NCBI GenBank assembly: GCA_022825885.1 | Contig: JAJDVY010000037.1 | Span: 1-64,000 of the forward strand | Length of the DNA: 64,000 bases | Origin: Nitrospirales bacterium | GTDB taxonomy: Bacteria; Nitrospirota; Nitrospiria; Nitrospirales; UBA8639 | Direction of reading: 5' to 3' | Shown here: positions 38,439 to 61,252 of the stretch, in pieces | How positions within the stretch are numbered: the stretch's first letter is position 1 | Layout: each line of letters begins with the position of its first letter | The notes under the pieces: generated by a model | Database searches by the model: none | What the model saw: only the letters and a program-made list of their open reading frames with translations | What the model was told of the DNA's origin: nothing | Translations under genes and position numbers: made by a program

Positions 38439-39785
38439 TTACTCCCTCTTCGCTCCAAAGGACGCCGTTAGGTCAGTCCTCTCCAATGATCCAGCCACGC
38501 CTTCATAAGCCAGTCCGTAAAAGGTTCCACTCACGACCCCGTCATCGCCTCCCGTACTTCGCAGAAAATTCCCACTGACAGCGATGTCATACTCCAAGGT
38601 TCCGTCTCTCCACTGAATCCCGCCCATCCCTTGAGTCGGGACGGTCTCGACCGGCCATGATTGAAGTTCGGTAAACGAGGCTTGCCCGTCTAACGTCCCT
38701 AAATTGACACTGAGTGACGCATCCCCACTGACAGGGCTTTGAGTGGGTGTGAAGCCGACCAGTCCGCCCTCCCAGGTGACGGTTCCGGTGAGCGCACGGT
38801 TATCTGACAAGTCGGTGTCTGGCTTTGTCCCGTTGGTCCACGGACGATTCAGTCCATTTTGATGTGTGACACCGAAGGACAGATCCCCGAATTGGCCCAT
38901 CAGAACTGTTGTCTCTTGATCCCACGGACCCAAACTCTGAGCAGAGAGTTCTTCCGGCTCCGTGACAGGCCCCAAACGGGTATATAGGGCGTAGATCGCA
39001 TTGGCATCACTCTCAACCAGTCCTCCTGTCAATGGCTTCCATGCCCCGTATTGGTACGAATTAGGCTCAGTAAATTGGCTACTTTCGACATGCCCTTGTA
39101 ACCCCAACGCATGCATCAGTTCGTGAACAAGAACGGAGAGCGTGGCCTCGTCGTCTCCACGAGCATCAAAATGTGTCCGATTCATCCACACATTCGCAGC
39201 CCGTAAACCCACTTTTTCCCATCGTTGCTGTTGTTCGTCGTACTCCTGGTACACGGATTGACCCGACGCCGCCTCAGATCCAGGTCTCCCAGTGAAATAG
39301 TCAGGGGCCCCAGTCGGAAAGCCGATATGAATTTGACCGTCAGACACCGCTGTTTCCTGAAGGAAGACCGGCACATCTGAGCCAATTTCAATATGCCAGT
39401 CATATGGCAAGGCTCGGTTAATGAGTGCAACCGCATAGTGTGTAATGGCTCGTTCACGGTCAGTCATGTCTTGCACGAGATAGACGGTTGGCGGTTCTTC
39501 AAATCTGACAAGTCCAGGATCGTGTTGCCACTCATACTCCAATCCAGAAGTCCACGGACCTCCACTGGCATGAATGCCTAAATACTCCACCATATCAGCC
39601 GAACTGGAGCCGACCCCCTGTTGAAGCGTGATTTCAAGCGATGGAAGGACTAGAGGAGGTTGGACGATAGGGCCAAGACTGCCTCTGCCTCTGCCTCTGC
39701 CTCTGCCTCTGCCTCTGCCTCCACAACCAAACACGGATAACACAAGCAGGATTCCGAGTAGCAAGAGGGTGCAGATGGGCCGCAT
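38439..39785 (-). CDS. Lipoprotein metalloprotease with TbpB-like C-terminal barrel
   Basis: A 448-aa predicted lipoprotein: the signal LLLLGILLVLSVFGC ends in a lipobox with Cys21. A run of about six Gly-Arg repeats follows (residues 22-36). A metzincin-type zinc site VLVHELMHALGLQGH (HExxHxxGxxGH) lies near residue 220. The last 110 residues are beta-rich and end VSGTFYGLAYEGVAGSLE and LTASFGAKR, which resemble the C-terminal beta-barrel closure of TbpB/Slam-dependent surface lipoproteins. AAAGGAGGT precedes the ATG at 39785. The combination suggests a surface-exposed or secreted protease; target unknown. Confidence 0.8.
   Translation of the reverse strand: MRPICTLLLLGILLVLSVFGCGGRGRGRGRGRGRGSLGPIVQPPLVLPSLEITLQQGVGSSSADMVEYLGIHASGGPWTSGLEYEWQHDPGLVRFEEPPTVYLVQDMTDRERAITHYAVALINRALPYDWHIEIGSDVPVFLQETAVSDGQIHIGFPTGAPDYFTGRPGSEAASGQSVYQEYDEQQQRWEKVGLRAANVWMNRTHFDARGDDEATLSVLVHELMHALGLQGHVESSQFTEPNSYQYGAWKPLTGGLVESDANAIYALYTRLGPVTEPEELSAQSLGPWDQETTVLMGQFGDLSFGVTHQNGLNRPWTNGTKPDTDLSDNRALTGTVTWEGGLVGFTPTQSPVSGDASLSVNLGTLDGQASFTELQSWPVETVPTQGMGGIQWRDGTLEYDIAVSGNFLRSTGGDDGVVSGTFYGLAYEGVAGSLERTDLTASFGAKRE
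39681..39720 (+). repeat. Hexanucleotide tandem repeat (GCCTCT)n inside the lipoprotein gene
   Basis: About 6.7 perfect copies of GCCTCT. On the minus strand it encodes the Gly-Arg run after the lipidated Cys. Copy changes would keep the frame and alter tether length. Confidence 0.9.
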
Positions 39786-54075: not shown

Positions 54076-55127
54076 TTGTAAATGTTCACTAATTCGTTGA
54101 CAGAATGATAGGATCACCCATCCTTTCACCTGGAGGCGAAGCCATGCGCAGAAATACGGAGGATAAGACCCTCTATCGCAACTATGTCCGGAAATGGAAA
54201 TTCCTGATCCACGAGTACGAGTTGGTCAAGCGGAAACGTCACCCCAAATTCCGGTTTGTCTCGGATTTCTACCGGTTTCATCAGACCCACCGCCAGACCT
54301 TCTTGAAATATTATCACCGCTTCCAGCAGCGGGGCACCGAGGAGGCCTTGGTCCCCCAGAAGCGCGGGCCGAAGTGGAAAAGTCGCCAGATCTCCGGGTA
54401 TATTGAGCGACAGATCTTGCAGCATCGGCAGAAGGGCATCAATCGCTATGAGATTTGTCAATTGCTGGCACCCACCCTGCAGCACCGGACGCCCTCGCCG
54501 AGTACGGTCTATCGGGTGAGCCGACGGCAGGGCCTGAATCGGTTAACGCCCCCGCTCAAACAGGAGAAACGGCGCATTGTGAAGCAGAAAGCCGGGGAAT
54601 TGGGGCATCTGGACTGCCATCACTTGAGCAAGGACCTGATTGCCACCGACCCGACCCGCTATTATCTGGTGTGTGTGATCGATGCCTGTACCCGCCTGGC
54701 CTGGGCCGAGGTGGTCACCGATGTGAAGAGCCTGACGGTGATGTTCAGTGCCCTGAAGAGCTTCAATCTGCTCCATCAGCGGTATCAGCTCCAGTTTGCC
54801 GAGGTCTTAACGGACAATGGCTCGGAGTTCGCGGCGCCCACCCGGCCCGCGACCCACCCGTTTGAACGCATGCTGCGGGAACTGGGGATCAAGCATCGGT
54901 ATACGCGGCCGTATCGGCCACAGACGAACGGGAAGGTGGAACGGTTCTGGCGGACGGTGAACGAGGACCTGATCGAGGGGACCACGTTCGCCAGCTTAGC
55001 GGAGTTTCAGGACGAATTGGAGCAATATTTGCTGTATTACAATGAGATGCGCCCTCATCAGGCGTTGGGAGGCCAAACCCCGAAACAAATTAACGCATCT
55101 TGTCAACGAATTACTGAACACATACAA
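54076..55127 (+). mobile_element. Complete IS481-like insertion sequence, 1052 bp
   Basis: Terminal inverted repeats of 27 bp lie at 54076-54102 and 55101-55127 (24 of 27 positions agree; both begin TTGTA and end TAATTCGTTGACA). They are flanked by GGA at 54073-54075 and 55128-55130, a probable 3-bp target duplication. One transposase gene with an rve core fills the element. Solitary copies of its ends occur at 4427, 6816 and 60359. Confidence 0.9.
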
Positions 55128-55133
55128 GGATGA
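54144..55133 (+). CDS. DDE transposase with integrase core (IS481-like)
   Basis: A 329-aa transposase. An N-terminal helix-turn-helix region (residues 1-130, including ALVPQKRGPKWKSRQISGYI) precedes the rve core with the DDE residues in GELGHLDCHHLSKD, AEVLTDNGSEF and PYRPQTNGKVERFWRT. C-terminal LLYYNEMRPHQALGGQTPKQ is typical of IS481/IS3-like enzymes. The ATG at 54144 has CTGGAGGCG 5 bases upstream; an ATG at 54105 lies too near the terminal repeat. The reading frame passes through the right terminal repeat and stops at a TGA (55131-55133) in the target DNA outside the element. Confidence 0.92.
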   Translation: MRRNTEDKTLYRNYVRKWKFLIHEYELVKRKRHPKFRFVSDFYRFHQTHRQTFLKYYHRFQQRGTEEALVPQKRGPKWKSRQISGYIERQILQHRQKGINRYEICQLLAPTLQHRTPSPSTVYRVSRRQGLNRLTPPLKQEKRRIVKQKAGELGHLDCHHLSKDLIATDPTRYYLVCVIDACTRLAWAEVVTDVKSLTVMFSALKSFNLLHQRYQLQFAEVLTDNGSEFAAPTRPATHPFERMLRELGIKHRYTRPYRPQTNGKVERFWRTVNEDLIEGTTFASLAEFQDELEQYLLYYNEMRPHQALGGQTPKQINASCQRITEHIQG

Positions 55134-58275: not shown

Positions 58276-58370
58276 CTGTCATCCTCGACGCTTGTCCCCG
58301 ATCCTCGATTAAAATAGCCTGTCCTTGACGTTCTTAATCGAGGATCAAGGACAGGCTTTGACCGGAGATC
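58276..58370 (+). repeat. Left copy of a 95-bp inverted repeat around the R-M genes
   Basis: It begins CTGTCATCCTCGACGCTTGT and contains the modules AATAGCCTGTCCTTGACG and TTAATCGAGGATCAAGGAC. The reverse complement of 60695-60789 is identical except at three positions. Part of the dispersed repeat family of this genome. The remainder of the gap 58153-58576 shows no gene. Confidence 0.85.
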
Positions 58371-58576
58371 CAGGCGATCTATAAGGATCCAGCGCCTTTG
58401 TCTTTTGTATTTCACCCTCTCCCTTGACTCCAGTCTGATTCTGTGGCCATCTTTGTTTCCGCCACTCCAACGTCCAGGCACATGATTGCGGTTTCGGAGA
58501 ATTTTGTCGATAATGGCTGGTGTTCCCCCACAAATGAGGTACGGTTTGCGACACGGCTCCAACCAGTAGGAATTTC

Positions 58577-59527
58577 ATGACCTCTCCCATAGAACAACGC
58601 TCAATGTTCAACAACGACAGCGCAAATGTGCGAAGTCATCGTGTCCGTCGTGCGACCGCGTTGCCCTCAAACCGTTTTCTTTCGATGACGGTTAACGACG
58701 AACCTATCGATTCGCTTGTGCAACCTGTGCTCATTCAAGGACATGCACTGGATGCATTGAACCTCCTGCCCGAAAACAGCATTCAGACGGTGGTGACATC
58801 ACCGCCGTACTGGTCCCTGCGAGATTACGCTGTCAAGGAGCAAATCGGATGCGACGAATCCCTTGCAGACTACCTTGCCGGCATCGTGAAGACCTTCGAC
58901 AAACTACGACGGGTTCTTAAAGCGGACGGCACGATCTGGTTGAATGTGGGCGACGCCTACACCTCGGGCAACCGCCGGTATCGTGCGCCGGACAAAAAGA
59001 ACCGCGCGCGCGCGATGTCCACGCGTCCCGTCACACCGGACGGACTCAAGCCAAAGGATCTGATCGGACTTCCTTGGAGGCTGGCGTTCGCACTACAGGA
59101 TGCCGGATGGTGGCTTCGATCCGAAATCATCTGGAGCAAACCAAATGCCCACCCGGAATCCGTGCGAGATCGACCGACGAAAGCGCATGAAATCGTGTTT
59201 CTCCTATCGAAAAATCAGGACTACTATTACGATGTCAAGGCAGTCCGTGGACCAAATGGCCGCCGTCTTCGGACGACATGGGAAATTCCGACGGAACCCC
59301 GGAAACAAAACAATGGTATCGTGGACGGTCATCCGGCCGTTATGCCGGCGGTGCTTGCCCAGCGCTGTTTGAGGATAACAAGCAGGCCCGGGGACTTCGT
59401 ACTTGATCCCTATGCCGGCTCAGGCACGACACTGTTGGCAGCGCAGGGTCTGGGAAGACAATGGGTTGGCATTGAATTGAAACCAGCCTTCATCGATTTG
59501 ATGCAACACAGGCTTATGAATCGGTGA
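58577..59527 (+). CDS. Type II DNA methyltransferase (beta class, N4-cytosine or N6-adenine)
   Basis: A 316-aa site-specific methyltransferase. Catalytic motif IV is VVTSPPYWSLRDY; the SAM-binding motif I lies after it, LDPYAGSGTTLLAAQGLG, giving the beta-class order. TSPPYW is the form common among N4-cytosine enzymes. The ATG at 58577 has GTAGGA 7 bases upstream; an internal ATG at 58685 would give a 280-aa protein with the usual family start. Its stop overlaps the next gene's GTG, so it protects host DNA from the adjacent endonuclease. Confidence 0.9.
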   Translation: MTSPIEQRSMFNNDSANVRSHRVRRATALPSNRFLSMTVNDEPIDSLVQPVLIQGHALDALNLLPENSIQTVVTSPPYWSLRDYAVKEQIGCDESLADYLAGIVKTFDKLRRVLKADGTIWLNVGDAYTSGNRRYRAPDKKNRARAMSTRPVTPDGLKPKDLIGLPWRLAFALQDAGWWLRSEIIWSKPNAHPESVRDRPTKAHEIVFLLSKNQDYYYDVKAVRGPNGRRLRTTWEIPTEPRKQNNGIVDGHPAVMPAVLAQRCLRITSRPGDFVLDPYAGSGTTLLAAQGLGRQWVGIELKPAFIDLMQHRLMNR

Positions 59528-60273
59528 CACTCGCCGAACTGAAAAAGCGGCTTGATACGCTTTCCCCGACAGGAATTCGATTCGTCGCCCGAATGGTGAA
59601 ATCGCTGTCGGCGCCTCCGCAGGCAAGAGTCAACAAACAGAAAACGTGGCTGCCCGCCGACTGGATTGAGTATTTTGGTCTCGCGCTTTCCGTGCACCAC
59701 GGAACGACAACGCAACCGCTTGAGCAAAAAGGCTTCGAAACGGTTTTCCGCAACGCGTGCGAATCCGTCGGCTGGGCGGTGGAAAGTCCTGTTTCGGAAA
59801 CCCGAAGGTTTCTGGACCTTCACGTCAAGCGTGATGGTTTTTCTGAACTGAAGCTGTCGTTGAAATCGACGGCTGCACAGCGGCTTTCCCGCACTTCGGC
59901 TCACATCTCGAAACTGACCGAAGCTGCATGGATTCAGGACATGCGGACTGCAAAACAACGCCGTGAACGGACCCTAACCCTGTTCCGGGAGTACATGAAT
60001 GCGGTGGACTCCATCATGATGTTACGGGCATTCCGCAAGGAACAAGGTATCCCCTCAGAGTACCAGCTTGTCGAAATACCGAGCGAAATGTTCCAGTCTT
60101 TGCAAAATGCTCCCCTGGTGTCGTTCAATGCTGACGGGCCGACCATTGACTGTTCCTATGGCGGGTATGATGTCGCGGCTCGTGTGTCCCTTGACCGGTC
60201 TGATGCAAAGATCACGATCAAGCAGATCCAGCTTGCCGCTTGCACCGTGCATGTGGAGTGGGAAATCGTGTAG
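59524..60273 (+). CDS. Probable type II restriction endonuclease (PD-(D/E)xK, XcyI-like)
   Basis: A 249-aa protein coupled to the methyltransferase by a 4-base GTGA overlap. A PD-(D/E)xK site is suggested by FLDLHVKRDG followed by FSELKLSLKS (Asp...Glu-x-Lys) near residues 98-115. The segment SAHISKLTEAAWIQDMRTAK is reminiscent of the XcyI group, whose members cut CCCGGG and pair with TSPPYW methyltransferases. The family and specificity are inferred from memory of the pattern. Cytoplasmic; no control gene seen. Confidence 0.7.
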   Translation: MTLAELKKRLDTLSPTGIRFVARMVKSLSAPPQARVNKQKTWLPADWIEYFGLALSVHHGTTTQPLEQKGFETVFRNACESVGWAVESPVSETRRFLDLHVKRDGFSELKLSLKSTAAQRLSRTSAHISKLTEAAWIQDMRTAKQRRERTLTLFREYMNAVDSIMMLRAFRKEQGIPSEYQLVEIPSEMFQSLQNAPLVSFNADGPTIDCSYGGYDVAARVSLDRSDAKITIKQIQLAACTVHVEWEIV

Positions 60274-60385: not shown

Positions 60386-60453
60386 GAATATCTAGCCTGC
60401 ATCGGGCGCGACCATGTCGTGTTCCTCCCCATTGTTTGCCCGCTTCTCGGAAC

Positions 60454-60604
60454 ATAGCAAAACTATAGCAGAACATAGCATTTCATAGCGGTAAACATAG
60501 CAATTTATAGCACAATCATAGCAAAACATAGCGACATCGCAGAAAAAATAGCAAAATCATAGCATGGCATAGCATGGTCATAGCAAAACCATAGCAAGCA
60601 TAGC
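60454..60604 (+). repeat. Array of about 15 ATAGC motifs at helical spacing
   Basis: ATAGC starts at 60454, 60465, 60475, 60485, 60497, 60507, 60518, 60528, 60548, 60559, 60569, 60580, 60591 and 60600, with a variant ATCGC at 60536. Steps are 8-12 bases, mean about 10.4. Most copies read CATAGC and many are followed by AAAA. No frame is coding and there are no direct repeats of CRISPR length. It occupies the main part of the gap 60274-60880. Confidence 0.85.
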
Positions 60605-60694
60605 GATGCGATGTTTGCGCGAGCAACACCCAACCCACTCTCCTGCCAGTGGGAGAGGGAAGGACAAGGACACTGGATTCCTATACATTGGCCA

Positions 60695-60789
60695 GATCCC
60701 CGATCAAAGCCTGTCCTTGATCCTCGATTAAGAACGTCAAGGACAGGCTATTTTAATCGAGGATCGAGGACAAGCGTCGAGGATGACAG
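60695..60789 (-). repeat. Right copy of the 95-bp inverted repeat
   Basis: Reverse complement of 58276-58370 with 92 of 95 identities. Between the copies lie the methyltransferase, the endonuclease, one IS-end remnant and the ATAGC array. Confidence 0.85.
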
Positions 60790-60880: not shown

Positions 60881-61252
60881 CTACGAAACCACGATCATGC
60901 CCTGCATGCCTCGATGGCCTTTGATGGGACACCGAAAATGATAGATGCCCGGCGGGAGGGTCAGCATGAGTTCAATCCGTTGGCCGGAGGCTAAGGGGAC
61001 TCCCTGCTCGAAGGAGCCGGCCGGCTCGACGGCATCAGAGACGACTTCGACGTAAGGGCCGGCCAATAAGCCACTCTGAAACCGGTGTGTTTCCCGGCCT
61101 TGATTTCTTACCACGATGTGGATCGGCTGCCCCGCCTGTACGTCCACCCGAGCCGGAGAGAAACGAAAATCATCGACGACGATTTGCACGTCCTGATACT
61201 CGGCGGAGCAGGCAATCAGACCCAGCATGAGGACCAGCAGGAATTTGACCAT
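60881..61252 (-). CDS. Cupredoxin-domain lipoprotein
   Basis: A 123-aa predicted lipoprotein: VKFLLVLMLGLIAC ends in a lipobox. The mature part is a single cupredoxin fold with type-1 copper ligands His in GRETHRFQSG and Cys, His and Met in YHFRCPIKGHRGMQG. Probably a periplasmic electron carrier or copper protein. The reading frame is open to 61420 but the ATG at 61252 gives the signal peptide directly. It is divergent from thiD, with 76 bases between. Confidence 0.85.
   Translation of the reverse strand: MVKFLLVLMLGLIACSAEYQDVQIVVDDFRFSPARVDVQAGQPIHIVVRNQGRETHRFQSGLLAGPYVEVVSDAVEPAGSFEQGVPLASGQRIELMLTLPPGIYHFRCPIKGHRGMQGMIVVS

What the first reader, a model, noticed from the sequence alone, without database searches (positions are those of the whole stretch)
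60454..60604. Fifteen ATAGC motifs phased at the DNA helical repeat
Fourteen ATAGC and one ATCGC occur in 151 bases with a mean step near 10.4 bases, so all lie on one face of the helix. The flanking bases vary (aaaac, atttc, ggtaa, cacaatc), so this is a motif conserved for position, not a simple tandem repeat or a CRISPR. Many copies are followed by A-tracts, so the DNA may also be curved. It sits beside a restriction-modification pair inside an inverted-repeat bracket. Possible meanings are a cooperative protein-binding filament site, a centromere or iteron-like site, or a structural anchor. I know of no named element with this design.
Basis: seen in the sequence. Interest (0 to 1): 0.85.

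Follow-up and report, generated by a model that had tools for sequence, protein, structure and literature searches.

The report
Helix-phased binding-site arrays across a genome
Bacteria related to sponge-living Nitrospira carry a dozen or more short stretches of DNA in which the same six-letter word recurs once per turn of the double helix; these stretches abound only in species that also keep one small, uncharacterised protein of DNA-binding type, so the two probably form a new system for gripping, and perhaps looping, the chromosome.

Summary
In detail: 14 ATAGC plus one ATCGC lie in window 60454-60604, mean step 10.4 bp. It is not a one-off. The same genome has about 14 such arrays and seven same-genus genomes have several each; hits elsewhere were background or uniform microsatellites. 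In 73 arrays (733 motifs) steps are 9-12 bp (mean 10.42), deviations are corrected by the next step (lag-1 r = -0.41), and gaps are mostly 20-22 or 30-33 bp. Motifs are 98% conserved between orthologous arrays, linkers 80%. Arrays keep position and orientation between species. RNA and CRISPR readings fail; the restriction-modification neighbour is incidental. A small protein (here 'ABP') with a predicted N-terminal helix and C-terminal winged helix (weak HARE-HTH match) is encoded 41-63 bp from the one array locus shared by all 8 array-rich genomes. It is intact in those 8 and in none of 6 array-poor congeners; one of those keeps a truncated remnant at the same site. Best reading: ABP multimerises on one face of these arrays, controls its own gene, and possibly bridges distant arrays (Rok- or FOXP3-like). 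Binding by ABP is inferred, not shown.

The parts
60454..60604 (+). phased array: 14 ATAGC and one ATCGC (60536-60540), mean step 10.43 bp
60422..60453 (+). upstream cap, TTCCTCCCCATTGTTTGCCCGCTTCTCGGAAC, shared in variant form with arrays L011, L014, L016, L166 and L200
60599..60627 (+). downstream cap: last CATAGC followed by an inverted one-mismatch motif GCGATG (60608-60613) and TTTGCGCGAGCAAC; similar caps end 16 of 73 arrays
59524..60273 (+). SmaI-like restriction nuclease gene ending 180 bp before the array; neighbour, judged incidental
58685..59527 (+). N6/N4 DNA methylase gene; neighbour, judged incidental
60881..61252 (-). cupredoxin-like gene, convergent neighbour
58276..58405 (+). 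left copy of the 130-bp inverted repeat (dispersed repeat family); not part of the array design
60660..60789 (-). right copy of the 130-bp inverted repeat; not part of the array design

Best explanation
Each array is a multi-site landing platform, about 50-180 bp long, for a DNA-binding protein that reads CATAGCA once per helical turn on one face of the DNA. The likely protein is 'ABP', a 139-148-aa protein (in this genome at G000:C31:670-1086, outside the window) with a predicted long N-terminal helix (possible coiled coil) and a C-terminal winged helix. Steps vary from 9 to 12 bp while overall phase is held, so subunits need not touch their neighbours in one fixed geometry; they must all point the same way, as expected if they share a partner surface such as a second DNA segment or a filament. 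Proposed action: ABP multimerises on an array, controls its own gene through the array 41-63 bp upstream of its start codon, and may bridge dispersed intergenic arrays into loops or clusters. Shown: recurrence, phase-keeping, motif conservation, positional conservation, co-occurrence with ABP. Predicted: winged-helix fold. Inferred: ABP binds the motif. Speculative: autoregulation, bridging and looping.
For: (1) 81 triple-motif hits in this genome against 1 for the reversed control; 13-108 hits in seven congeners, 0-3 in the other six, 0-2 in 46 genomes outside the genus. (2) Steps 9-12 with compensation, lag-1 r = -0.41; coherence peaks at 10.4-10.5 bp and exceeds all 300 step shuffles. (3) 41 of 75 'missing' in-phase slots hold a one-mismatch motif, ATCGC 24 times. 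(4) Orthologous arrays: motif 98.3% identical, linker 79.7%, flank 86.4%. (5) Position and orientation conserved at about 12 loci, up to 8 genomes each, with internal turnover and array-free sites in other congeners. (6) ABP intact in exactly the 8 array-rich genomes and in 0 of 6 array-poor ones, 1 in 3003 by chance if genomes were independent; G010 keeps only a C-terminal remnant upstream of thiC; G006 (ABP+) and G011 (ABP-) are sisters at 100% support. (7) ABP start codon 41-63 bp from the locus-C array in all 8. (8) HARE-HTH matched by 8 of 8 orthologs at E up to 1, best 5e-5; AF2 C-terminal half with pLDDT about 78-91; best fold matches are winged helices, among them linker histones and RNAP delta at Z 8.2-8.8; Rok and FOXP3 among the Foldseek hits, none of them significant by E-value.
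Against: No binding data. Co-occurrence was tested for one candidate gene (and the R-M nuclease, which fails), in 14 genomes related by descent; other clade-specific genes could share the pattern. The tree rests on two genes and the place of G007 is weakly supported (42). The HARE-HTH match of the G000 protein is below Pfam's cut-off. Fold Z of 8-9 is not far above what unrelated small folds can reach. A 37% identical ABP homolog in another family (G211) has no phased array in 627 kb scanned, about a fifth of that genome. G011 and G004 lack ABP but each keep one array.
Confidence: 0.55

Rival explanations
1. The arrays are phased protein-binding sites, but for another protein (for example an OmpR/PhoB-type regulator, a centromere adaptor or a known nucleoid protein). 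ABP is only a neighbour gene of locus C with the same clade distribution.
For: Co-occurrence was tested for very few genes; the genomes share descent. OmpR/PhoB-type proteins bind 7-bp direct repeats at 11-bp steps. G011 and G004 keep one array each without ABP.
Against: PhoP needs a strict 4-bp spacer, whereas linkers here are 4-7 bp. ABP has a DNA-binding type fold, sits at the array locus common to all 8, and its absence recurs in lineages that have few or no arrays.
Confidence: 0.22
2. The arrays work by DNA shape: phased TA and A-rich steps make curved DNA that favours wrapping by a general protein such as gyrase or HU, with no dedicated reader.
For: Arrays are predicted to be strongly curved and lose this when phase is broken. 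Array lengths up to 182 bp are near the size wrapped by gyrase (own knowledge).
Against: Curvature alone does not require one exact 6-bp word; the motif is 98% conserved while A-rich linkers vary. Restriction to array-rich genomes that keep ABP is unexplained.
Confidence: 0.1
3. The arrays are a selfish or neutral dispersed repeat: a minisatellite or a non-autonomous mobile element that spreads between intergenic sites and decays.
For: Array-free sites exist; several non-orthologous arrays share end caps; copy number turns over.
Against: Phase compensation, motif far better conserved than linker, and conserved position and orientation at about 12 loci. Non-orthologous arrays differ in linkers, so they are not recent copies.
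Confidence: 0.1
4. The array acts as RNA, for example a transcript with repeated AUAGC bound by a ring or repeat protein.
For: Repeated short words are bound in RNA by some proteins (own knowledge, e.g. TRAP).
Against: Step held at the B-DNA repeat of 10.4 with phase memory; no Rfam match and no excess folding; no fixed relation to transcription direction.
Confidence: 0.03

Closest known systems
FOXP3 multimers on TnG repeats (PMC10719092)
   Same: Winged-helix protein with a coiled-coil domain; [quoted passage not shown] tolerates spacings of 11-13 and 21-22 bp but not 14-19; bridges two DNAs.
   Different: Eukaryotic; short-unit microsatellites; no sequence relationship to ABP found; bridging by ABP untested.
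Rok and other bridging nucleoid proteins of Bacillus (PMC11841835)
   Same: Rok bridges DNA and is linked to long-range chromosomal loops; the Rok DNA-binding domain is among the Foldseek hits of ABP (5zuz).
   Different: Rok binds extended A+T-rich, often foreign regions; here the sites are discrete phase-locked arrays of one motif, many beside core genes.
ParR/parC plasmid centromeres (PMC9426499)
   Same: 10-11-bp direct repeats bound by an adaptor protein around which DNA wraps.
   Different: parC lies beside parM; ParR is typically ribbon-helix-helix. Here about 14 chromosomal sites and a predicted winged helix.
OmpR/PhoB-type regulators (PMC4832192)
   Same: Winged helix; direct repeats of a 7-bp motif at 11-bp steps.
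   Different: Few copies at promoters, strict spacer, receiver domain. Here up to 16 copies, variable spacer, no promoter rule.
HARE-HTH domain (PF05066), including RNA polymerase delta
   Same: The C-terminal part of ABP matches weakly and the model aligns with RNAP delta (2m4k, Z 8.2).
   Different: Known members are parts of RNA polymerase, restriction enzymes or chromatin proteins; I know of none with phased site arrays.

Membership tests
Simple tandem repeat / minisatellite | near-identical unit of fixed period | tested here: not met
   Linkers vary in sequence and length; steps 9-12 with compensation. Most CATAGC repeats in other taxa have uniform steps.
CRISPR array | near-identical repeats of about 23-47 bp separated by unique spacers | tested here: not met
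   5-6-bp motif every 10.4 bp.
Structured non-coding RNA | known or stable RNA fold | tested here: not met
   No Rfam match on the array; fold z-score 0.14.
ParMRC centromere (parC) | 10-11-bp direct repeats | tested here: met
ParMRC centromere (parC) | single site next to parM/parR | tested here: not met
   About 14 dispersed sites; genes beside arrays show no recognisable parM/parR, judged by eye except where profiled.
OmpR/PhoB box | strict repeat spacing | tested here: not met
   Steps of 9-12 bp.
HARE-HTH (PF05066), for ABP | profile match above the curated cut-off | tested here: inconclusive
   8 of 8 orthologs match at E up to 1, best 5e-5; G000 member 19.8 bits against a cut-off of 25.9.
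Winged-helix fold, for ABP | three helices plus beta-hairpin wing aligning with known winged helices | tested here: met
   Predicted model only: AF2; VIA-align Z 8.2-8.8 for the best rows.
Rok/H-NS-like bridging protein | N-terminal oligomerisation region plus C-terminal DNA-binding domain | tested here: inconclusive
   Predicted helix 3-36 and winged helix 66-133; oligomerisation not assessed.
Rok/H-NS-like bridging protein | bridges DNA | not testable with these tools
   Needs biochemistry.
FOXP3-type repeat multimer | sites on one face with variable but phase-keeping spacing | tested here: met
   searches compared with PMC10719092
FOXP3-type repeat multimer | homology to forkhead proteins | tested here: inconclusive
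   No forkhead profile match for the ABP orthologs; fold resemblance only.
Non-autonomous mobile element | terminal repeats and target-site duplication | tested here: inconclusive
   Array-free sites at loci A and B read by eye; no target-site duplication evident.

The most novel reading that the evidence does not exclude
A dedicated bacterial chromosome-looping network: a small protein with an N-terminal helix and a winged helix, and about 14 genome-wide, helix-phase-coded anchor arrays that it bridges to each other, a bacterial counterpart of FOXP3 bridging of TnG repeats.
Probability: 0.3. Interest if true: 0.92.

Novelty: new variant of a known kind. Interest (0 to 1): 0.8.

Why it matters
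If ABP binds these arrays, this is a compact protein-site pair in which the DNA sites record that the helical face, not the exact spacing, is under selection, so how a multimer reads phased DNA becomes directly testable. It would add a lineage-specific chromosome-organising or silencing system in uncultured nitrite-oxidiser relatives, small enough to rebuild in a laboratory strain. Lineages that lack both ABP and most arrays give a ready evolutionary control.

Tried and rejected
RNA reading: no Rfam match, no excess structure. Phage or plasmid origin: no match to the array region; CATAGC hits in viral contigs showed 5-, 9- and 11-bp repeats or no array; no ABP relative in viral contigs or plasmids. 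R-M link: the SmaI-like nuclease occurs in array-less G002 and, in G006 and G013, without an array beside it. Replication-strand orientation: local GC skew gave no clear answer. Promoter role: no common gene arrangement. Phased arrays of any 5-mer in G211, which has an ABP homolog: none in 627 kb. First AF2 run with 8 close orthologs was poor (pLDDT 45); adding distant homologs gave 78. PDB sequence-profile search gave only weak hits (5ceg_A, E 0.06). Literature searches found no description of such arrays, but the library is open-access only and the searches were few. An A-tract count for the window printed (0.0) came from a coordinate slip in my script and is not used.

Full report
Observation. 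Window 60454-60604 holds 14 ATAGC and one ATCGC, 146 bp over 14 steps, mean 10.43 bp. Chance is excluded: 0.06 expected at the window's own density, and dinucleotide shuffles of the array never exceed 8. A scan for phased chains of any 5-mer finds nothing else in the window except shifted readings of this array.

Recurrence. In the same genome a triple-motif pattern hits 81 times against 1 for the reversed control, in about 14 separate arrays on different contigs. Among relatives, seven congeners have 13-108 hits, the other six congeners 0-3, and 46 genomes outside the genus 0-2. By matching contig lengths, several congeners are the MAGs SB0662_bin_26, SB0677_bin_15, bin75, RHO3_bin_20, p16x63bins.32 and jk18x40bins.30; bin75 comes from the sponge Aplysina aerophoba (PMC5649159). 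A sponge source for the others is my inference from their names.

Phase. In 73 arrays (733 motifs) single steps are 9 (60), 10 (225), 11 (217) and 12 (34), mean 10.42. A 9 is mostly flanked by 11 or 12 and a 12 by 10 or 9; lag-1 correlation is -0.41, with none of 2000 permutations as low; the variance of summed steps is about half that of a random walk. Larger steps fall at 19-22, 30-33 and 40-43, with rare others. Pairwise-distance coherence peaks between 10.4 and 10.5 bp and exceeds every step-shuffled set (0.727 against a maximum of 0.671), so phase is held over more than one step. In missing slots 41 of 75 hold a one-mismatch motif, mostly ATCGC. The consensus is CATAGCA followed by A-rich bases (C 80%, A 92%). 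Predicted curvature is high (wedge values from memory).

Evolution. Arrays at about 12 loci are shared between species, in the same orientation to the flanking DNA. Inside, copy number and linkers turn over while motif and phase stay. In gap-free aligned blocks motif identity is 98.3%, linker 79.7%, flank 86.4% (alignment of repeats favours the motif, so the difference is somewhat inflated). At locus A, between an arginine decarboxylase and an exonuclease III gene, five congeners have no array; at locus B, between purE and nuoF, the array-poor genomes read there (and G001) have none, except G004. Arrays lie in intergenic space beside varied genes: between convergent genes, before start codons, or after stop codons, so they are not a promoter class. 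Sixteen of 73 arrays end in an inverted motif that makes a near-palindromic pair, CATAGCAATGC(G/T)ATG in most.

Candidate protein. The one array locus found in all eight array-rich genomes (locus C) has, 41-63 bp from its end, the start of a 139-148-aa gene, here ABP. ABP is intact in exactly these eight genomes and absent from G002, G004, G007, G008 and G011; G010 keeps only a C-terminal remnant upstream of thiC, the same place. A nuoF+exoIII tree puts ABP+ G006 as sister of ABP- G011 (support 100), with G004 next (94), so array richness and ABP were probably lost together more than once (two genes only, G007 weakly placed). The other arrays are on other contigs, so the coupling is in trans. 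In 396 genomes of the phylum the only other near-full-length homolog outside the genus is in G211. Distant homologs lie beside what looks like an IS1-type transposase gene (judged by eye). ABP orthologs match HARE-HTH weakly; the AF2 model has a helix at 3-36 and a winged helix at about 66-133; structural matches are winged helices including linker histones, RNAP delta, Rok and FOXP3.

Mechanism. Because spacing is loose but phase is tight, a chain of fixed neighbour contacts, as in PhoP (strict 4-bp spacer, PMC4832192), fits less well than subunits that must all face one partner. FOXP3 on TnG repeats behaves this way: 11-13 and 21-22 bp tolerated, 14-19 not, two DNAs bridged (PMC10719092). 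Rok bridges DNA and is linked to long-range loops (PMC11841835). I therefore propose that ABP multimerises on the arrays, controls its own gene, and may bridge arrays. Binding by ABP is inferred; autoregulation and bridging are speculative.

What was not done. No other genes were profiled for co-occurrence except the R-M nuclease, which does not follow the arrays. Array lists for some congeners were cut by the tool, so array numbers per genome are approximate. No orthologous array for this particular window locus was found among those fetched.

Noticed in passing
58276-58405 and 60660-60789: 130-bp inverted repeats, 89% identical, around the R-M pair and array; parts of the same repeat occur in other loci of this genome (L011, L016, L017), so a dispersed repeat family.
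   Followed up: partly
58685-60273: Compact R-M pair: N6_N4 methylase and a SmaI-like (PF17411) nuclease; close homologs of the nuclease in G002, G006 and G013, with similarity ending at the edges of the pair, suggesting horizontal movement.
   Followed up: partly
L255 (G010:C1:582542-582670): Truncated C-terminal remnant of ABP upstream of thiC in an array-less congener.
   Followed up: yes
L273, L275, L276: Distant ABP homologs near sequences that look like IS1-type transposase genes and a small gene rich in K and G, possibly cargo of a mobile element.
   Followed up: partly
L017 about 1500-1800, and L258, L261, L262 upstream of thiC: Apparent TPP riboswitch sequence before thiC, next to array locus C.
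   Followed up: no
54105-55133: Intact-looking integrase-type (DDE) transposase ORF of 342 aa, named from its sequence by eye.
   Followed up: no
39679-39721: Perfect CTGCCT hexamer repeat, 7.2 copies.
   Followed up: no
L020 upstream and L013 downstream of their arrays: Type I restriction-modification-like genes beside two other arrays, named by eye; most arrays lie beside other genes.
   Followed up: partly
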